Source of the DNA: Actinomycetota bacterium
Lineage (GTDB): Bacteria; Actinomycetota; Thermoleophilia; Miltoncostaeales; Miltoncostaeaceae
Assembly: GCA_963169235.1 (NCBI GenBank)
Contig: CAUJCX010000013.1
Coordinates: 1 to 50,433 of the forward strand
Direction: 5' to 3'
Length of the DNA: 50,433 nucleotides
Below the pieces are notes generated by a model, which searched no databases, was not told where the DNA came from, and was given only the letters and a program-made list of their open reading frames with translations. The position numbers and the translations under genes are program-made. Below are positions 22,805-32,246 of the stretch, piece by piece (position 1 is the first letter of the stretch; each line of letters opens with the position of its first letter).

Positions 22805-23815
22805 GTGATCCGCCCCGTCCTGCGATTTCCCGACCGGCGCCTGAAGCAGCCCGCGGTGCGGCTGGGCCGGGTGGGCCCCGCGGCCCGGCGGCTCGCCGTC
22901 GACCTGCAGGAGACCGCACGGTCGCATCCCCGCACCGTGGGGCTGGCGGCGACCCAGCTGGGCGTGATGTGGCGCATGGTCTACATCGACCTCACCGACC
23001 ACCCCAAGGTGGACGCGCCCGTCGGCCCGCTGTGGCTGGTCGACCCGCAGGTGGTCGACCACGACGGCTGGGAGGTGGGCCGCGAGGGGTGCCTGTCGCT
23101 GCCCGACATCACGGCGGACGTGGGGCGGCCGCACCGGGCCACGGTGCACGCGCTCGACCTCGACGGGCGCCCCGTGACGCACGAGGTGGAGGGCTTCACC
23201 GCCCGCGTCTTCCTGCACGAGATCGACCACCTGGACGGCGTGCTGATCCTCGACCGCGTCACGTCGCTGGCGCGCGACGTGTTCGCCCGGGCCGGGGGCC
23301 AGCGGCGCAGCCGGGCCGAGAGCCGGGTGCAACGCGCCGCCGCGCTGGCGCGGGTGGCGCACGCCGGGCAGCGCGACGGTGGCCGCCCGTACGCGCAGCA
23401 CCTGGAGGAGGTGGTGGACGTGCTGGCCGAGGCCGGCGTCGACGACCCGGGCCTGCGGGCGGCCGCGTGGCTGCACGACTGCGTGGAGGACACCCCGGTG
23501 ACGGTGGCCGACCTGGTGCCCGACTACGGGGCGCGGGTCGCGGCCCTCGTCGACGCGCTCACCGTGTACCCCGGGCCGGACGGCGCGCCCGACCACGAGG
23601 CCTCATGGCGGCGCATCGCGGCCGAACCGGGAGCCGTCGCGGTGAAGCTGGCCGACCGCATCGCGCGGGCGCGGTCGCACCCCGATCGCGTGCCGCGCTA
23701 CCGGGGTCAGCAGCCGGCGCTGCGCGCCGCGCTCGCGGACGCCGACAGGGGCGTGGTGGACGCGGCCGTCATCGCCCGCATGTGGACCGAGCTGGACGCC
23801 GCCCTGGCGCCGTAG
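22805..23815 (+). CDS. peptide deformylase fused to a MESH1/SpoT-like HD domain
   Basis: The protein is 336 residues. Residues 1-155 are a peptide deformylase, which removes the formyl group from new proteins: motif 1 VGLAATQLG (Q51), motif 2 REGCLSLPD (metal ligand C96), motif 3 FLHEIDHLDG (H138, E139, H142). Residues 175-330 are an HD phosphohydrolase like the (p)ppGpp hydrolase half of RelA/SpoT and MESH1: ARVAHAGQRD, PYAQHLEEVV (H199), AAWLHDCVEDTPVT (H224, D225, E228, D229) and VAVKLADRIARAR (D284). The asparagine normally four residues after that aspartate is Arg (R288). There is no synthetase domain. The start GTG 22805 is 4 nt after the ACT gene. The domain pairing is unusual and would join N-terminal protein processing to nucleotide or alarmone turnover. 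Confidence 0.9.
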   Translation: MIRPVLRFPDRRLKQPAVRLGRVGPAARRLAVDLQETARSHPRTVGLAATQLGVMWRMVYIDLTDHPKVDAPVGPLWLVDPQVVDHDGWEVGREGCLSLPDITADVGRPHRATVHALDLDGRPVTHEVEGFTARVFLHEIDHLDGVLILDRVTSLARDVFARAGGQRRSRAESRVQRAAALARVAHAGQRDGGRPYAQHLEEVVDVLAEAGVDDPGLRAAAWLHDCVEDTPVTVADLVPDYGARVAALVDALTVYPGPDGAPDHEASWRRIAAEPGAVAVKLADRIARARSHPDRVPRYRGQQPALRAALADADRGVVDAAVIARMWTELDAALAP

Positions 23816-23818
23816 GCC

Positions 23819-24238
23819 CTACTTCTTGCCGCCGGAGTAGTAGCGGTCGTCGCCGTCCGAGCGGCGCACCGCGTGCACCGGGTTGCCCGCGGCGTCCCAC
23901 TGGTAGTACGAGCAGGCCGGGCCGAGGCCGCTCTCGTACGTCTGCACGCGCGGGTTACGGCCGATATCGCGCGCGGCGGCGCAGTGACGCAACAGCGCGG
24001 GGTCGTCCATCTCGGGCCACACGATGATGAGGTGCGAGGCGGTGAGGAACGTCGCCACGAACTCGCACCCCGCCGCGGGGCACGGCCACGGGTCGGTGCG
24101 CACGCAGAACCACCCGCTGTAGTCCTCGCCCGAGTCGTCGGTCCACAGCTGCTCGTCCTGATCGAGGTCGGGATCGTCCAGGCGGGGGTCGTCGATGGTG
24201 ATCGCGGGCCCGTCCTCGCGCTCGTCGTGCTCGGCCAC
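23819..24238 (-). CDS. unknown acidic protein with a C2H2-like pattern
   Basis: The protein is 139 residues. The first 45 are very acidic (IDDPRLDDPDLDQDEQLW). The middle has CPAAGCEFVATFLTASH and LLRHC, so two cysteines and histidines could form a zinc site. The C-terminal part holds QTYESGLGPACSYYQWDAAG and ends YYSGGKK. No membrane segment or signal peptide is present. ATG 24238 has a strong Shine-Dalgarno sequence (AGGAGGAG), unlike the leaderless genes nearby. Its stop is 3 nt from that of the deformylase-HD gene. I do not recognise the family. Confidence 0.8.
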   Translation of the reverse strand: MAEHDEREDGPAITIDDPRLDDPDLDQDEQLWTDDSGEDYSGWFCVRTDPWPCPAAGCEFVATFLTASHLIIVWPEMDDPALLRHCAAARDIGRNPRVQTYESGLGPACSYYQWDAAGNPVHAVRRSDGDDRYYSGGKK

Positions 24239-24452: not shown

Positions 24453-26363
24453 ATGCGCCGAACCCGCCTCGTCTCCGCCCTGTCCCTGTGTGCCGCCGCC
24501 GCGGGCGCCGTCGCGGTCGTGCCCATGATGGCGCGGTCGTCCGCGAGCGACTACCGCCTGCCCGACCTGGTGTCGGTGGCGCCGCCGACGGACAACGCGT
24601 ACCTCATCGAGGGTGCGTTCACGTCGAACCCGGGCGAGGAGAACGCCGCCAACCGTCTGCTTCTGCGCTTCGACGGGTACATCGACAACGTCGGTGACGG
24701 CCCGGTGCACTTCGAGGGCAACCCCCAGACCCGCGGCGTGCGCCAGTGGGCGCAGCGCGCCACGGGCGGAGTCCCCCAGCCGCTGATGCCGGGCGACGCC
24801 ATCGCGTCGCCCGGCGCCTACCCGCTGAACAACGACGCGGAGGCCCGCACGGAGTGCGCCGGCGTCAGCGCCGCCCCGCCGGCGCGGCCCGCGTCCGGCC
24901 CGTGCTTCATCTACTCCAGCACCGACAGCGTCGCCGCGTCGGACGGCCACGACCACTGGCACGTGGTGGGCGCCGCCCGGTACTCGCTGTGGAACGAGGC
25001 GGGTGACACGCAGGTGGCGCCGGGTCAGAAGGCGGGGTTCTGCCTCTACGACTACGCCAAGATCCCGGGCATGACCCAGGGGCCCCAGTACTACGGGTAC
25101 CAGGGCGGCACCGACAACTTCTGCCAGAGCAAGGCCGACGGTGGCGGGCCGACCGTCACGTCGCTGGTGGAGGGCATCAACCCCGGCTATCGCGACGTGT
25201 ACGAGTCGCGCCTGGCGTGGCAGTGGATCGACGTCTCCGACGTGCCGCCCGGCCGCTACCGCCTGGGCGACGAGGTCGACCCGTACAACCGCATCTGGGA
25301 GAAGAACGAGGTCAACCCGGTGGCCAAGTCGCCGGGCACGGTGGCCATCCCCGGCTGGGTGTCGCCGGCCCCGGCGGCCGCGTCCACGGCTCCCGGCACC
25401 CCCGTCGCCATCCCCCTGACGGCGTCCAAGATCGCGAGCAGCTGCAAGAAGGACCCCAACACCAGCCGCTACGCGCCGTGCGCGACCACGGGCGGCACGT
25501 ACACGCCCGCGGACGCCGACCGGCGCTTCCGCGTGGTGCAGGCGCCCCAGTACGGAACGCTCAGCGTCGCCGCCGGGAGTGACTTCACCGACCCCAGCCT
25601 GGTCTACACGCCCAACCCGGGCGTGCAGGGCGTCGCCGACAGCTTCCAGTACACGGTGCGCGACGCGGCCAGCGCGTATCCGCTGCACCCGTCGCCCGTC
25701 AGCGCGGTCGTCTCGGTGAACGCGGCGCCATCTCCCGCACCCGGTCCGGGTCCGGTCGCGCCCAGCGCCCCGGTCAAGGCCGTCACCATCGACGGCGCCC
25801 CCGGCACGGTGCTGGCCGGCATGCAGGCGCGACTGCGCGCCAACCTGGTGAACGCGTCCGGGCCCGTGGTGTGGAGCGTCAACGGCCGCCGCGGCGGCAG
25901 CCGCCTGGTGGGCACCATCTCGGCCAGCGGCGTCTACCGCGCCCCCGCCCTTCCGCCCGCGTCCCGGCGCGTGGTGATCGGCGTGGCGCTGGCGTCCGAC
26001 CCCGGCGTGGTGGCGCGCACCACGGTGCGCATCGCCATGCCGACGCGCAGCCGTCCGATCCCGCTGCCGTTCTCGTCGATGGTGAAGCGCAAGAACGTCA
26101 CCCTCTCGGTCGCCCGGCTGGGCTCCCGGGTCGTGGTGCAGGCCGTCCCGAAGCGCACCGGGGTCATGCACGTGCGCGTCTTCCGCAGCACCAAGCGCGT
26201 GAAGTCGTGCACGTTCCGGCGCGCGGTGAGAGGGCGCTTGGCGGTCTGCTTCGTGCAGGCGCCGAAGCCGAAGGCTCTGCGTCGCGCCACCATCGTGGTG
26301 ACCACGAAGGCGCGCGGCGCGAAGCACGCGCAGTCCACCGTGGTGAAGCGCCGCATTGTCTGA
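24453..26363 (+). CDS. secreted lysyl-oxidase-like protein 1 (one Ig-like domain)
   Basis: Lysyl oxidases are copper amine oxidases that turn peptidyl lysine into reactive aldehyde and so cross-link proteins. The protein is 636 residues. It has a signal peptide (VSALSLCAAAAGAVAVVPMM) and then a LOX domain (about 35-300). The copper motif is SDGHDHWHVVG (H166, H168, H170). K193 in GQKAGFCLYDY and Y250 in GYRDVYESRLAWQWIDVSD match the animal LOX lysine and tyrosine that form lysine tyrosylquinone. A cadherin-like domain (TPADADRRF, then DSFQYTVRDAAS, about 345-430), one Ig-like domain (about 445-530) and a basic tail with two cysteines (KRVKSC, RLAVCF) follow. The upstream ORF extension before ATG 24453 was rejected because the -10 and signal peptide fit this start. 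First of three tandem paralogues, less similar than the other two are to each other. Confidence 0.85.
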   Translation: MRRTRLVSALSLCAAAAGAVAVVPMMARSSASDYRLPDLVSVAPPTDNAYLIEGAFTSNPGEENAANRLLLRFDGYIDNVGDGPVHFEGNPQTRGVRQWAQRATGGVPQPLMPGDAIASPGAYPLNNDAEARTECAGVSAAPPARPASGPCFIYSSTDSVAASDGHDHWHVVGAARYSLWNEAGDTQVAPGQKAGFCLYDYAKIPGMTQGPQYYGYQGGTDNFCQSKADGGGPTVTSLVEGINPGYRDVYESRLAWQWIDVSDVPPGRYRLGDEVDPYNRIWEKNEVNPVAKSPGTVAIPGWVSPAPAAASTAPGTPVAIPLTASKIASSCKKDPNTSRYAPCATTGGTYTPADADRRFRVVQAPQYGTLSVAAGSDFTDPSLVYTPNPGVQGVADSFQYTVRDAASAYPLHPSPVSAVVSVNAAPSPAPGPGPVAPSAPVKAVTIDGAPGTVLAGMQARLRANLVNASGPVVWSVNGRRGGSRLVGTISASGVYRAPALPPASRRVVIGVALASDPGVVARTTVRIAMPTRSRPIPLPFSSMVKRKNVTLSVARLGSRVVVQAVPKRTGVMHVRVFRSTKRVKSCTFRRAVRGRLAVCFVQAPKPKALRRATIVVTTKARGAKHAQSTVVKRRIV

Positions 26364-26374
26364 GACCGCGGCCG

Positions 26375-26401
26375 CGGACGTGCGGGCAACCCGCACGTCC
26401 G
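26375..26401 (+). terminator. terminator hairpin after lysyl oxidase 1
   Basis: A perfect twelve-pair stem, CGGACGTGCGGG and CCCGCACGTCCG, with a CAA loop, 12 nt after the stop codon. No T-run. Confidence 0.75.
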
Positions 26402-26489
26402 CTCCGGGCGCGGCCGAGAATCGTCCACCCCTACGGTCGGGTGGTGAAACCCCCCCAAGGGTGCGTCGCGCGCGCACCTTCGTCATGAA

Positions 26490-26495
26490 TAGGTT
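26490..26495 (+). promoter_or_regulatory. -10 element of lysyl oxidase 2
   Basis: TAGGTT, six bases before ATG 26502, with no Shine-Dalgarno sequence. Confidence 0.5.
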
Positions 26496-26501
26496 GCCCG
26501 C

Positions 26502-28433
26502 ATGAAACGTTCTCGTGTTCTTGGTGTGCTCGGTGTGGCGGCGGGGCTGGCGGGTGCGGCGGCGGTGGTGCCGCTGGTGGCCAGTTCGGCGGCGGGTGAC
26601 TACAAGTTGCCGGACCTGGTGTCGGTGGCTCCCCCGACCGACAACGCGTACCTCATCGAGGGGACGTTCTCAGGTGCCACGGAGCAGCTGACCGAGAACC
26701 GCCTGCTGGTGCGGTTCGACGGGTTCATCGACAACGTCGGTGACGGCCCGATCCACTTCGAGGGCAACCCCAACGCGCGGGGCGTGACGCAATGGGCGCA
26801 GCGCGCTGCGGGTGGCCCCCCCCAGCCCCTCATGGCCGGAGACGCGATCGCGTCGCCCACGGGCTACCCGTTGAACAACGACGCCGAGGACCAGTCGACG
26901 TGCATCGGGGTGTCGGCGGCGCCGCCGGCCAGGCCGGCGAAGGGCCCGTGCGTCATCTACTCCACCACCGACAAGACGATCAACACGACGTCGGCCTATT
27001 CCGACGGGCACAACCATTGGCACCTGGTGGGTGCGGCGCGTTATTCGCTGTGGAACCAGGCGGGCACGGCGCAGGTGTCGCCGGGTCAGAAGGTCGGGTT
27101 CTGCATGTACGACTACGACCGCATCCCGGGGATGCCGTCGGGCACCCGGTTCTACGGGTATGCGGGGGGGACCGACAACTTCTGCCAGCAGTACCGCCCG
27201 GATGCGACGAACCTGATCGAGGGGATCAATCCGGGCTTCCGCGACGTGTACGAGTCGCGGCTGGCGTGGCAGTGGATCGACGTGTCCAACGTCCCGCCCG
27301 GCCTGTACCGCCTGGGTGACGAGGTCGACCCGTTCAACCGCATCTGGGAGAAGAACGAGAACAACCCGGTCGACATCTCGGACGGCACGTTCACGGTGCC
27401 CGGATGGGCGGCCACGGGCGGGTCCGCAGCGACGTCGGCCGCGACGCCGGTGGCGGTTGCGCTGGGTTCCACCAAGTTCGGTGGCATGTGCAAGTTCCGC
27501 CCCACCGATCCGCGGCCGGCGGAGGGTGACCGCGCCGGGTGCACCGCCACCCGCGGCATCCAGTACACACCCGCCGACTCGGACCGCCGCTTCGTCATCA
27601 CCAAGGCCCCGGCCAAGGGCACGCTCAACGTCGCCCTCAACCAGCCGTTCACCGCGACGTCGGTGACGTACACGCCGAACGCCGGCGTGACGTCCACGTC
27701 GGACACGTTCTCGTACGCCGTCTACGACGCGGCCAGTGGATACCCGCTCACCCGCACGTCCTCGGCCGTCACCGTCTCGGTCGGTGGGGTCGCCCCGGTG
27801 ACGCCCGCCATCGCCGTGAGTGGCAACCCGGCGTCGATGGACGTCAACACGCAGGTCGCCCTGCAAGCCGCCGTCGTCAACGGCGCCGGTCCCGTCGCGT
27901 GGTCGGTCAACGGCGTTCCGGGTGGCAACGCCACGGTGGGCACCGTCAGCCCCACCGGCGTCTACGCCGCTCCCGCCGCAGTCCCCGCGGGCGGCACGGT
28001 GACGGTGCGGGCGGCGCTCGCGTCCAACCCGGGTGTGTTCGCCGACGTCGTCATCACCATCACGACGCCGCCGACCCCGCAGGCTCAGCCGCTGCCGTTC
28101 ACGCCTCCGGTGGCCACCACCACCGGCGGTCCCAGGACCACGACCACGACCAAGACCACGACAGCGTTGCGACTGCGTCCGGGCGTGACGCGCATCGGCA
28201 GCCGCGTGGTGGTGCGCATCGTGCCGCCGGCCAACGGTCGCCTGGCCGTGTCGGTTTTCCAGGGCAAGAAGCGCGTCAAGGCGTGCCTCTTCACGAAGGC
28301 CGTTCGGGGCCGCGCGGCGGTCTGCTACGTGCGCAGCCCGCGTGCGCTGCGCGGGGTCCGCGTCGCCACCAGCCTGAAGGTGCGCGGCACCACGCGCACG
28401 CTGAAGGCCACGGTGCGCAAGGCCCGCATCTGA
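26502..28433 (+). CDS. secreted lysyl-oxidase-like protein 2 (one Ig-like domain)
   Basis: The protein is 643 residues, built as signal peptide (VLGVLGVAAGLAGAAAVVPL), LOX domain (about 33-300), cadherin-like domain (TPADSDRRF to DAASGYPL, about 350-420), one Ig-like domain starting AVSGNPASMDVNTQV, a threonine-rich linker and a basic tail (GKKRVKACLF, RAAVCYV). Key LOX residues are H170, H172 and H174 in DGHNHWHLVG, K197 in GQKVGFCMYDY and Y250 in GFRDVYESRLAWQW. The first 850 nt or so are almost identical to those of paralogue 3, showing a recent tandem duplication. Early codons end in G or T more than the rest. The natural substrate is unknown; secreted or wall proteins, including the lysine-rich tails of the paralogues themselves, are possible (inference). 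Confidence 0.86.
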   Translation: MKRSRVLGVLGVAAGLAGAAAVVPLVASSAAGDYKLPDLVSVAPPTDNAYLIEGTFSGATEQLTENRLLVRFDGFIDNVGDGPIHFEGNPNARGVTQWAQRAAGGPPQPLMAGDAIASPTGYPLNNDAEDQSTCIGVSAAPPARPAKGPCVIYSTTDKTINTTSAYSDGHNHWHLVGAARYSLWNQAGTAQVSPGQKVGFCMYDYDRIPGMPSGTRFYGYAGGTDNFCQQYRPDATNLIEGINPGFRDVYESRLAWQWIDVSNVPPGLYRLGDEVDPFNRIWEKNENNPVDISDGTFTVPGWAATGGSAATSAATPVAVALGSTKFGGMCKFRPTDPRPAEGDRAGCTATRGIQYTPADSDRRFVITKAPAKGTLNVALNQPFTATSVTYTPNAGVTSTSDTFSYAVYDAASGYPLTRTSSAVTVSVGGVAPVTPAIAVSGNPASMDVNTQVALQAAVVNGAGPVAWSVNGVPGGNATVGTVSPTGVYAAPAAVPAGGTVTVRAALASNPGVFADVVITITTPPTPQAQPLPFTPPVATTTGGPRTTTTTKTTTALRLRPGVTRIGSRVVVRIVPPANGRLAVSVFQGKKRVKACLFTKAVRGRAAVCYVRSPRALRGVRVATSLKVRGTTRTLKATVRKARI

Positions 28434-28445
28434 GGTTGTGGTATA

Positions 28446-28474
28446 CGCGTCCCGCCCTCACCCGGCGGGACGCG
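28446..28474 (+). terminator. terminator hairpin after lysyl oxidase 2
   Basis: An eleven-pair stem, CGCGTCCCGCC and GGCGGGACGCG, with a seven-base loop, 12 nt after the stop codon. Confidence 0.75.
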
Positions 28475-28516
28475 GAACTACCCGTCCGGTTAGCGCGGGC
28501 CGGTCGCCCCGAGTCA

Positions 28517-28522
28517 TAGAGT
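28517..28522 (+). promoter_or_regulatory. -10 element of lysyl oxidase 3
   Basis: TAGAGT, seven bases before ATG 28530, with no Shine-Dalgarno sequence. Confidence 0.5.
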
Positions 28523-28529
28523 CGCGCGC

Positions 28530-31500
28530 ATGCGGCGCTCTCGTGTTCTTGGTGTGCTGGGTGTGGCGGCGGGGCTGGCGGGTGTGGCGGCGGTGGTGCC
28601 GCTGGTGGCCAGTTCGGCGGCGGGTGACTACAGGTTGCCGGACCTGGTGTCGGTGGCTCCCCCGACCGACAACGCGTACCTCATCGAGGGGACGTTCTCG
28701 GGTGCCACGGAGCAGCTGACCGAGAACCGCCTGCTGGTGCGGTTCGACGGGTTCATCGACAACGTCGGTGACGGCCCGGTGCACTTCGAGGGCAACCCCA
28801 ACGCCCGCTCCGTGGCGCAGTGGGCCCAGCGCGCCTCGGGCGGGGCGCCGCAGGCCTTGATGGCGGCGGACGCGATCGCCTCGCCCACGGGCTACCCCCT
28901 GAACAACGACGCCGAGGACTCGCAGGAGTGCACGGCGGTGTCAGCGGCGCCGCCGGCCAAGCCGGCGAAGGGCCCGTGCGTCATCTACTCCACCACCGAC
29001 CGCACCATCAACACGTCGGCGGCGGCGTCGGACGGGCACAACCACTGGCACCTGGTGGGTGCGGCGCGTTATTCGCTGTGGAACCAGGCGGGGACGGCGC
29101 AGGTGTCGCCGGGTCAGAAGGTCGGGTTCTGCATGTACGACTACGACCGCATCCCGGGGATGCCGTCGGGGACCCGGTTCTACGGGTACGCGGGGGGGAC
29201 GAACAACTTCTGCCAGCAGTACAACCCGGGTGCGACGAACCTGATCGAGGGGATCAATCCGGGCTTCCGCGACGTGTACGAGTCGCGGCTGGCGTGGCAG
29301 TGGATCGACGTCAGCAACGTGCAACCCGGGCGATACCGCCTGGGGGACCAGGTCGATCCGTTCAACCGCATCTGGGAGAAGAACGAGAACAACCCTGTCG
29401 ACGTCTCGGCCGGCGCGTTCGTGGTTCCGGGCTGGGTGCCCGTGTCACCCGGCGCCGTGTCGACCGGGGCGGGCGCACCCGTGGCGGTCGCGCTGGGTTC
29501 CACCAAGTTCGGTGGCATGTGCAAGTTCCGCCCAACCGATCCACGCCCGGCGGAGGGTGACCGCGCCGGGTGCACCGCCACCCGCGGCATCCAGTACACA
29601 CCCGCCGACTCGGACCGCCGCTTCGTCATCACCAAGGTCCCGGCGAAGGGCACGCTCAACGTCGCCCTCAACCAGCCGTTCACCGCGACGTCGGTGACGT
29701 ACACGCCGAACGCCGGCGTGGCATCCACGTCCGACACGTTCTCGTACGCCGTCTACGACGCGGCCAGCGGATACCCGCTCAACCGCACGTCGATGGGCGT
29801 CAACGTCACCATCGGCGCCGGGGCCCCCGCTCCCAGCGTGGCGATCAGCGGCAATCCGTCGTCGATGGTGGCCGGCAGCCAGGTCGACCTGGATGCGGCG
29901 GTGTCCAACTCCACGAGTGGTGTGGAGTGGTCGACGTCGGCCGGGAGCATCGACGCGAACGGCCTGCTGACGGCGCCGGCGTCGGTGCCGGCGGGCGGCA
30001 CCATCACGGTGACCGCGCGCCTGGCCTCGGATGCCTCCGTGCTCGCGCGGGCCACCATCGCCGTCACCGCGGCGCCTGTGCCCAGCGTGGCCATCAGCGG
30101 CAATCCGTCGTCGATGGTGGCCGGTAGCCGGGTCGATCTGAACGCCGCGGTGTCGAACTCCACGAGTGGTGTGGAGTGGTCGACGTCGGCGGGCAGCATC
30201 GACGCGAACGGCCTGTTGACGGCGCCGGCGTCGGTGCCGGCGGGCGGCACCATCACGGTGACCGCGCGCCTGGCCGCGGACGCGTCCGTGCTCGCGCGGG
30301 TCACCATCGCCGTCACCGCGGCCCCCGCACCCACCGTGGCCATCGTCAACGCGCCGTCGTCCATGGTGGCGGGCAGCAGGTTCGACCTGAACGCCGCGGT
30401 GACGAACTCCACCAGTGGCGTGGAGTGGTCGACGTCGGCGGGCAGCATCGACGCGAACGGCCTGTTGACGGCGCCGGCGTCGGTTCCGGCGGGCGGCACC
30501 ATCACGGTGACCGCGCGCCTGGCCTCGGATGCCTCCGTGCTCGCGCGGGCCACCATCGCCGTCACCGCGGCGCCGGTGCCCAGCGTGGCCATCAGCGGCA
30601 ATCCGTCGTCGAGGGTGGCCGGTCGCCGGGTCGATCTGAACGCCGCGGTGTCGAACTCCACGAGTGGTGTGGAGTGGTCGACGTCGGCGGGCAGCATCGA
30701 CGCGAACGGCCTGTTGACGGCGCCTGCGTCGGTTCCGGCGGGCGGCACCATCACGGTGACGGCGCGCCTGGTCTCGGATGCCTCCGTGACGGCGCGGGTC
30801 ACCATCGCGATCACGGCGGCCCCCGTCCCGACGGTGGCGATCAGCAACGCGCCGTCGTCCATGGTGGCGGGCAGCCGGGTCGACCTGGATGCGGCGGTGG
30901 CGAACTCCACCAGTGGCGTGGAGTGGTCGACGTCGGCGGGCAGCATCGAGGCGAACGGCCTGTTGACGGCTCCGGCGTCGGTGCCGGCGGGCGGCACCAT
31001 CACCGTGACCGCGCGCCTCACCACCAACGCGGCCGTGACGGCGCGGGTGACCATCGCGGTCACTGCGGCCCCCGTGCCGAGCGTGGCGATCACGGGCAAC
31101 CCGTCGTCGATGGTGGCCGGTAGCCGGGTCGATCTGAACGCGGCGGTGGTGAACTCCAACAGCGGCGTGACGTGGTCGACGTCGGCGGGCAGCATCGACG
31201 CGAACGGCCTGTTGACGGCTCCGGCGTCGGTGCCGGCGGGCGGCACCATCACCGTGACCGCGCGCCTCACCACCAACGCGGCCGTGACGGCGCGGGTGAC
31301 CATCGCGGTCACCGCGGCCCCCGTCCCCACCGTCACGATCACCAACGCCCCCGCGTCCCTGGGCGTGAGCGATCGCGCCGATCTGGACGCGACGGTGGCG
31401 AACTCCACCAGCGGCGTGACGTGGACGGCGTCGGCCGGCAGCATCGACCGCAACGGGGTGTTCACCGCCCCGGCGACTGTCCCGGCGAGCGGGTCGGTGA

Positions 31501-32246
31501 CCGTGGTGGCGAAGCTCGCCGCCAACCCGGCCATCAGCTACACGGTGGCGATCCGCATCACGGCCCGTCCGGTGGCTCCCGCCCCCGGCCTGGCGATCAG
31601 TGGCAACCCGTCGTCGATGGACGTCAACACGCAGGTCGACATGGACGCCGCGGTGGTCAACTCCACCAGCGGCGTGACGTGGACCGCCACGGCCGGCACC
31701 ATCGACGCCAACGGCGTGTTCACGTCCCCGTCCACCGTCCCCGCGGGTGGGACGATCACGGTGCGGGCCGCCCTCGCGTCCGACCCGGCGGTGTTCACCG
31801 AAGCCCGCATCACCATCACCACCCCGCCGCGGCCCGAGCCGCAGCCGCTGCCGTTCGTGCCGGCGTCCCCGGCCGCTGCGGGTCCGGCTCCGGGCGTCCC
31901 GACGCCCTCCCCGGGCCCGACGACGTCCACCCCGGCGCCGTCCGCGACGATCACCCGGCGCACCCAGCGCGTGCCGCGCCGCCTGCCGCGTCCCACGTTG
32001 GTGCGCATGGGTGGCCGCGTCGCGGTGTGGTTCGTGCCGCCCGCCAACGGGCGCGTCGCGATCTCGCTGTACGTCGGCAAGCGCCGCGTGAAGGCGTGCG
32101 TCGTGAGGCGGGCCGTCTCGACGCGCCCGATCGTGTGTTACGTGCGCCGCGCGACGCGGGCTCGCAACGTGCGCGTCGTGGTGTCGCAGCGACTGGGCGC
32201 GGCGCCGCGCACGCTCAAGGTGACCGTGCGCAGGCGCGTGATCTGA
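28530..32246 (+). CDS. secreted lysyl-oxidase-like protein 3 with eight Ig-like repeats
   Basis: The protein is 1238 residues. Signal peptide, LOX domain (H170, H172, H174; K197; Y250, all kept) and cadherin-like domain (about 350-425) match paralogue 2. Residues from about 432 to 1099 are eight Ig-like domains of about 83 residues. Repeats 1-6 are nearly identical (GVEWSTSAGSIDANGLLTAP, then ASVPAGGTITVTARL); 7 has diverged. Repeat 8 (SGNPSSMDVNTQV) is most like the single Ig domain of paralogue 2, so it is probably the ancestral one and the others arose by amplification in front of it. A Pro/Thr linker and the shared basic tail (GKRRVKACVV, PIVCYV) end the protein. This looks like an enzyme held away from the cell on a stalk. 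Anchoring through the tail is inference. Confidence 0.87.
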   Translation: MRRSRVLGVLGVAAGLAGVAAVVPLVASSAAGDYRLPDLVSVAPPTDNAYLIEGTFSGATEQLTENRLLVRFDGFIDNVGDGPVHFEGNPNARSVAQWAQRASGGAPQALMAADAIASPTGYPLNNDAEDSQECTAVSAAPPAKPAKGPCVIYSTTDRTINTSAAASDGHNHWHLVGAARYSLWNQAGTAQVSPGQKVGFCMYDYDRIPGMPSGTRFYGYAGGTNNFCQQYNPGATNLIEGINPGFRDVYESRLAWQWIDVSNVQPGRYRLGDQVDPFNRIWEKNENNPVDVSAGAFVVPGWVPVSPGAVSTGAGAPVAVALGSTKFGGMCKFRPTDPRPAEGDRAGCTATRGIQYTPADSDRRFVITKVPAKGTLNVALNQPFTATSVTYTPNAGVASTSDTFSYAVYDAASGYPLNRTSMGVNVTIGAGAPAPSVAISGNPSSMVAGSQVDLDAAVSNSTSGVEWSTSAGSIDANGLLTAPASVPAGGTITVTARLASDASVLARATIAVTAAPVPSVAISGNPSSMVAGSRVDLNAAVSNSTSGVEWSTSAGSIDANGLLTAPASVPAGGTITVTARLAADASVLARVTIAVTAAPAPTVAIVNAPSSMVAGSRFDLNAAVTNSTSGVEWSTSAGSIDANGLLTAPASVPAGGTITVTARLASDASVLARATIAVTAAPVPSVAISGNPSSRVAGRRVDLNAAVSNSTSGVEWSTSAGSIDANGLLTAPASVPAGGTITVTARLVSDASVTARVTIAITAAPVPTVAISNAPSSMVAGSRVDLDAAVANSTSGVEWSTSAGSIEANGLLTAPASVPAGGTITVTARLTTNAAVTARVTIAVTAAPVPSVAITGNPSSMVAGSRVDLNAAVVNSNSGVTWSTSAGSIDANGLLTAPASVPAGGTITVTARLTTNAAVTARVTIAVTAAPVPTVTITNAPASLGVSDRADLDATVANSTSGVTWTASAGSIDRNGVFTAPATVPASGSVTVVAKLAANPAISYTVAIRITARPVAPAPGLAISGNPSSMDVNTQVDMDAAVVNSTSGVTWTATAGTIDANGVFTSPSTVPAGGTITVRAALASDPAVFTEARITITTPPRPEPQPLPFVPASPAAAGPAPGVPTPSPGPTTSTPAPSATITRRTQRVPRRLPRPTLVRMGGRVAVWFVPPANGRVAISLYVGKRRVKACVVRRAVSTRPIVCYVRRATRARNVRVVVSQRLGAAPRTLKVTVRRRVI
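29823..31565 (+). repeat. seven tandem 249-bp repeats coding Ig-like domains (an eighth follows to about 31826)
   Basis: Units begin at 29823, 30072, 30321, 30570, 30819, 31068 and 31317, exactly 249 bp (83 codons) apart, and an eighth starts at 31566. DNA identity among the first six is very high, including synonymous positions such as GTCGACGTCGGC. That points to recent unequal crossing-over or gene conversion. Copy number may vary between strains, and short-read assemblies may miscount it. Confidence 0.93.

What the first reader, a model, noticed from the sequence alone, without database searches (positions are those of the whole stretch)
24453..32246. Three tandem bacterial lysyl oxidases with an intact LTQ cofactor pair
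All three genes keep the HxHxH copper site and, aligned by eye with animal LOX (GHKASFCLEDT and DTYGADIDCQW), a Lys in GQK(A/V)GFC and a Tyr in RDVYESRLAWQW. These are the residues that form lysine tyrosylquinone. That predicts secreted enzymes able to make lysine aldehydes and cross-link proteins at a bacterial surface, here as a three-gene cluster.
Basis: partly seen in the sequence, partly recalled or inferred. Interest (0 to 1): 0.75.

Follow-up and report, generated by a model that had tools for sequence, protein, structure and literature searches.

The report
Bacterial lysyl oxidases in tandem
A bacterium carries three neighbouring copies of a probably secreted copper enzyme related to the one that cross-links animal collagen; the active-site residues are all there, but such bacterial relatives have been known since 2015 and clusters of them are common in this bacterial family, so the find itself is fairly ordinary.

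Summary
Three tandem genes (24453-26363, 26502-28433, 28530-32246, + strand) encode lysyl oxidase (PF01186) domains over the curated cut-off, each with HxHxH and the Lys and Tyr that align with human LOXL2 K653 and Y689. A structure model of gene 1 matches human LOXL2 (5ZE3) best: Z 12.8, 184 residues, 3.3 A. The genes are lineage-specific paralogues in a Thermoleophilia genome, at a locus that holds two or three LOX genes in other genera of the family. LOX genes occur in 139/399 sampled genomes of the class. Bacterial LOX with conserved HxHxH, Lys and Tyr were published in 2015; an archaeal one was shown to be an active amine oxidase in 2019. Protein cross-linking is unproven; the archaeal enzyme takes many small amines. 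The most interesting thing met lies outside the window: a Thermoleophilia LOX clade without HxHxH (0/30; third His replaced by an invariant Lys) still keeps the Lys and Tyr in 30/30, so that pair alone does not prove a quinone cofactor.

The parts
24453..26363 (+). LOX gene 1 (636 aa): N-terminal hydrophobic segment, LOX domain (about aa 31-310), Big_9 Ig-like domain (358-407), second Ig-like domain, C-terminal domain with two Cys
24948..24962 (+). gene 1 HxHxH (HDHWH, aa 166-170), aligned with LOXL2 His626/628/630
25029..25031 (+). gene 1 LTQ-type Lys193 (aligned with LOXL2 K653)
25200..25202 (+). gene 1 LTQ-type Tyr250 (aligned with LOXL2 Y689)
26502..28433 (+). LOX gene 2 (643 aa); HxHxH at 27009-27023, Lys197 codon 27090, Tyr250 codon 27249
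28530..32246 (+). LOX gene 3 (1238 aa); HxHxH at 29037-29051, Lys197 codon 29118, Tyr250 codon 29277; LOX part 87.5% identical to gene 2 in protein
29818..31492 (+). 6.7 tandem copies of a 249-bp (83-aa, in frame) Ig-like repeat inside gene 3, probably a long stalk
   Evidence: repeat; aBig_2 match on the same protein
23819..24238 (-). 139-aa protein of no Pfam family that flanks the LOX locus also in G011, G018 and G019; synteny marker, not part of the mechanism

Best explanation
The three genes encode exported copper amine oxidases of the lysyl oxidase family. After export the three His of HxHxH bind Cu2+; copper and O2 oxidise the conserved Tyr, which links to the conserved Lys to give lysine tyrosylquinone; the quinone then turns primary amines into aldehydes with release of NH3 and H2O2. 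The catalytic domain is followed by Ig-like domains, few in genes 1 and 2 and many in gene 3, that probably hold it away from the cell. The substrates may be Lys side chains of surface proteins or free small amines; cross-linking is only one possible outcome. Shown here: homology, residues, fold, tandem duplication and locus conservation. Inferred: export, copper, LTQ, activity. Unknown: substrate and purpose.
For: PF01186 over cut-off in all three; the only phmmer hit in the PDB is human LOXL2, with Lys and Tyr aligned, and it is the top profile hit at E 4.6e-17; the model's best structural match is 5ZE3, Z 12.8 over 184 residues at 3.3 A; Lys 114/114, Tyr 113/113, HxHxH 111/114 across collected relatives; genes 2 and 3 differ mostly at silent sites (dN 0.083, dS 0.217 by NG86; 0.070 and 0.54 by YN00); an archaeal relative needs Cu2+ for activity, is inhibited by BAPN and oxidises primary amines and Lys polymers.
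Against: No assay of any member of this clade. Two auxiliary His of human LOXL2 are absent (Ser at the position of His623, Gln at that of His652); H623Q and H652Q cut LTQ to under half in LOXL2. A sister clade keeps Lys and Tyr without HxHxH, so the pair alone does not prove LTQ. No substrate gene or partner is conserved at the locus.
Confidence: 0.77

Rival explanations
1. Active LOX-family oxidases whose natural job is to use or destroy small extracellular amines (nitrogen gain, H2O2 release, inactivation of amine antibiotics), not to cross-link proteins. This is a sub-case of the best explanation, about purpose.
For: The archaeal enzyme has relaxed specificity: taurine, histamine, cadaverine, polymyxin, aminoglycosides. 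No conserved matrix-protein partner at the locus.
Against: The Ig-like stalks, long in gene 3, suggest a fixed place at the surface, which fits a local protein substrate at least as well; the archaeal enzyme also takes Lys polymers and lysozyme.
Confidence: 0.4
2. Active oxidases that cross-link surface or matrix proteins, as animal LOX does. Also a sub-case of the best explanation, about purpose.
For: Same residues and fold as animal LOX; modular Ig-like architecture; in the related genome G001 the LOX pair lies beside genes that look like polysaccharide export and polymerisation (by sequence reading only).
Against: No substrate known; the assayed archaeal relative has no detectable activity or role in its host.
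Confidence: 0.25
3. The domains are LOX-like folds in which Lys and Tyr are kept for a reason other than LTQ, so the enzymes are inactive or do other chemistry.
For: A sister clade in the same class keeps Lys 30/30 and Tyr 30/30 with HxHxH 0/30, although in LOXL2 the three His are required for LTQ.
Against: The window proteins do have all three His, and HxHxH is kept in 111/114 of the main family; the archaeal member is active.
Confidence: 0.12

Closest known systems
Prokaryotic lysyl oxidases of Grau-Bove et al. 2015 (PMC4448552), Actinobacteria included
   Same: LOX domain, HxHxH, Lys and Tyr conserved, the first animal His (LOX H289) absent
   Different: Most of those had only the LOX domain; the window proteins carry Ig-like domains and one carries a long repeat stalk
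HTU-LOX of Haloterrigena turkmenica (PMC6452851)
   Same: Prokaryotic LOX with HxHxH, Lys and Tyr; the best available guide to activity
   Different: 308 aa, no Ig-like stalk, acidic; from an archaeon
Human LOXL2 (PDB 5ZE3)
   Same: Fold (Z 12.8) and aligned copper and LTQ residues
   Different: SRCR domains instead of Ig-like ones, two more conserved His near the active site, about 27% identity over the structural alignment

Membership tests
Lysyl oxidase family (PF01186) | Profile match above the curated cut-off | tested here: met
   48.4, 38.4, 36.7 bits vs 20.4; also in the whole-genome search
Lysyl oxidase family (PF01186) | HxHxH copper motif | tested here: met
   HDHWH, HNHWH, HNHWH
Lysyl oxidase family (PF01186) | LTQ Lys and Tyr at the homologous positions | tested here: met
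   aligned with LOXL2 K653 and Y689 by phmmer and by profile; invariant in relatives
Lysyl oxidase family (PF01186) | Lysyl oxidase fold | tested here: met
   model of gene 1 (pLDDT 78.2), best match 5ZE3_A Z 12.8, 3.3 A, 184 residues
Lysyl oxidase family (PF01186) | Export signal | tested here: inconclusive
   basic N-terminus plus hydrophobic stretch (best 15-residue mean hydropathy 2.3-2.4); no signal-peptide predictor available
Lysyl oxidase family (PF01186) | Copper and LTQ present, amine oxidase activity | not testable with these tools
   needs purified protein
Animal-type LOX (LOX, LOXL1-4) | Additional conserved His (LOXL2 His623, His652) | tested here: not met
   Ser and Gln at these positions in gene 1, Gln at the second in all three (alignment); absence of the first His is usual in bacteria
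Protein cross-linking LOX | Oxidises Lys in a matrix protein in vivo | not testable with these tools
   no substrate known

The most novel reading that the evidence does not exclude
The cluster is a bacterial counterpart of the animal matrix-hardening system: exported LOX enzymes on Ig-like stalks of different length oxidise Lys of neighbouring surface proteins and fix them covalently, a function expanded to five or six genes in some genomes of this family.
Probability: 0.18. Interest if true: 0.6.

Novelty: new member of a known kind. Interest (0 to 1): 0.32.

Why it matters
As a finding it adds a multi-copy, multi-domain example to a known bacterial family whose natural job is unknown. If these enzymes cross-link surface proteins, that would show a use of LOX chemistry outside animals and their kin. 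The side observation matters more for interpretation: databases will probably name the HxHxH-free relatives 'lysyl oxidase' although they should not be able to make the cofactor by the known route, and they offer a natural test of what the Lys-Tyr pair is for.

Tried and rejected
Chance or misread frame: rejected. Other quinone or copper amine oxidase families: no other amine oxidase family appeared in Pfam or NCBIfam scans at E up to 1. A shared surface-anchor domain: the C-terminal domain was sought in the whole genome and found only on the three LOX proteins plus one weak hit at E 0.012, so no wider sorting system is supported. Partner genes: the locus is syntenic in the family (139-aa protein on one side, acyl-CoA carboxylase subunits on the other) but the carboxylase neighbours are housekeeping genes. 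A self-protective Lys-free stalk: gene 3 has no Lys from 374 to 994, but one 83-aa unit copied about seven times is nearly a single event, so this proves nothing. Promoter and terminator scans gave nothing beyond chance. Papers on Thermoleophilia or Solirubrobacter with LOX: none held.

Full report
WHAT IS THERE. The finding's coordinates are exact. Three genes on the + strand, 24453-26363 (636 aa), 26502-28433 (643 aa) and 28530-32246 (1238 aa), each begin with a basic, then hydrophobic segment, followed by a lysyl oxidase domain. Pfam gives PF01186 at 48.4, 38.4 and 36.7 bits against a cut-off of 20.4, and these are the only three PF01186 matches in the 2.94-Mb genome. Gene 1 also has a Big_9 domain; gene 3 has 6.7 in-frame copies of a 249-bp unit at 29818-31492 and an Ig-like (aBig_2) match.

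ACTIVE-SITE RESIDUES. Searching the PDB sequences with gene 1 alone returned one hit, human LOXL2 (5ZE3, E 2.2e-5), with GQKAGFC on GHKASFC and DVYESRLAWQW on DMYRHDIDCQW. A profile from 19 sequences gave the same alignment at E 4.6e-17. The set was collected with a profile seeded by the window genes, so it leans towards similar proteins.

FOLD. An AlphaFold2 model of gene 1 (alignment of 19 sequences, mean pLDDT 78.2, pTM 0.68) has 5ZE3_A as its best structural match: Z 12.8, rmsd 3.3 A, 184 aligned residues, model 30-331. The C-terminal part matches Ig-like domains at Z 8-10, a common arrangement. The Lys-Tyr distance could not be measured.

ORIGIN AND SPREAD. Genes 2 and 3 are 87.5% identical in the LOX part (88.9% in DNA), gene 1 about 70% to both. 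In the tree the three form one clade (SH-aLRT 99) beside the tandem pair of the other genome of the genus (100), so the copies arose within the lineage. The sister genome's contig C64 has the same length (48271) and LOX content as JAGQUM010000021.1 (Thermoleophilia bacterium isolate HKST-UBA59), which places the window in class Thermoleophilia by inference. PF01186 occurs in 31/42 genomes of the order, 139/399 sampled from the class and 38/396 from the phylum, with up to six copies per genome. In two other genera of the family (G010/G011 and G018/G019) LOX genes sit at the same locus, next to the same 139-aa protein and/or the same acyl-CoA carboxylase genes; G018 has three there, and G019, G010 and G011 have two. 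A tandem LOX cluster at this place is therefore not peculiar to this genome. Genes 2 and 3 show fewer amino acid changes than silent ones, as expected for working genes.

WHAT IS KNOWN. Grau-Bove et al. 2015 reported LOX in five bacterial clades including Actinobacteria, with the copper His, the Lys and the Tyr widely conserved, the first animal His absent, and mostly single-domain proteins (PMC4448552). Pestov et al. 2019 showed that the archaeal HTU-LOX is a Cu-dependent, BAPN-sensitive amine oxidase with relaxed specificity and no detectable role in its host (PMC6452851). The window genes are new members of that family, with Ig-like stalks as the less usual trait.

HOW IT PROBABLY WORKS. 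By family knowledge: copper bound by HxHxH and O2 convert Tyr to a quinone that joins the Lys, and the quinone deaminates primary amines to aldehydes plus H2O2. Each step after the sequence and fold is inference. Whether the product is a protein cross-link is open; I put the small-amine role somewhat higher, because the one assayed prokaryotic enzyme is promiscuous and no matrix partner is conserved here.

A CAVEAT FROM THE RELATIVES. Following the three exceptions to HxHxH led to a clade of LOX homologues in Thermoleophilia (about 44 strong matches in 299 genomes). In the 30 examined, HxHxH is absent (0/30); the position of the third His is an invariant Lys; and the LTQ-type Lys, Tyr, Asp and Cys are all 30/30. 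The clade is one side of a branch with support 100 (15 members tested, quick tree). In human LOXL2 the three His are essential for LTQ formation (PMC9694262). So either the Lys-Tyr pair has another role, or it is linked by another route, or the metal is bound by other residues. Nothing of similar strength was found outside the class in 396 genomes sampled from the phylum. I found no paper on it in the held library; the 2015 paper notes one red alga LOX without the His core. The window genome has no member.

VERDICT. Observation confirmed; interpretation right as to family and residues, unproven as to function; new member of a known kind.

Noticed in passing
L113:814-2199 (-), L114-L142, L024:1417-3321 (-), L091:1468-2853 (-): A Thermoleophilia clade of LOX homologues has no HxHxH (0/30; third His is an invariant Lys) yet keeps the LTQ-type Lys, Tyr, Asp and Cys in 30/30; databases would probably name them lysyl oxidase.
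   Followed up: partly
L106:4432-6111 (+): A further single LOX homologue (G011) with Lys and Tyr but only one His of HxHxH (GTTWHFA), apart from that clade in the tree.
   Followed up: partly
window 22805-23815 (+): One open frame joins a peptide deformylase (PF01327) to an HD_4 domain (PF13328, as in SpoT/MESH1-type ppGpp hydrolases); in G019 (L097:3550-4041) the deformylase stands alone.
   Followed up: no
L093:9902-13442 (-), L097:9362-12866 (+): In G018 and G019 the LOX cluster also holds genes whose N-termini look like a Ser/Thr kinase and an FHA-domain protein, between LOX copies; absent from the window.
   Followed up: no
L035:1158-7824 (+): In the sister genome the tandem LOX pair follows genes that look like a polysaccharide flippase/polymerase and a chain-length regulator, a different neighbourhood from the window's.
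   Followed up: no
window 29818-31492: The 83-aa repeats of gene 3 are similar to each other and Lys-free; no Lys between residues 373 and 995.
   Followed up: partly
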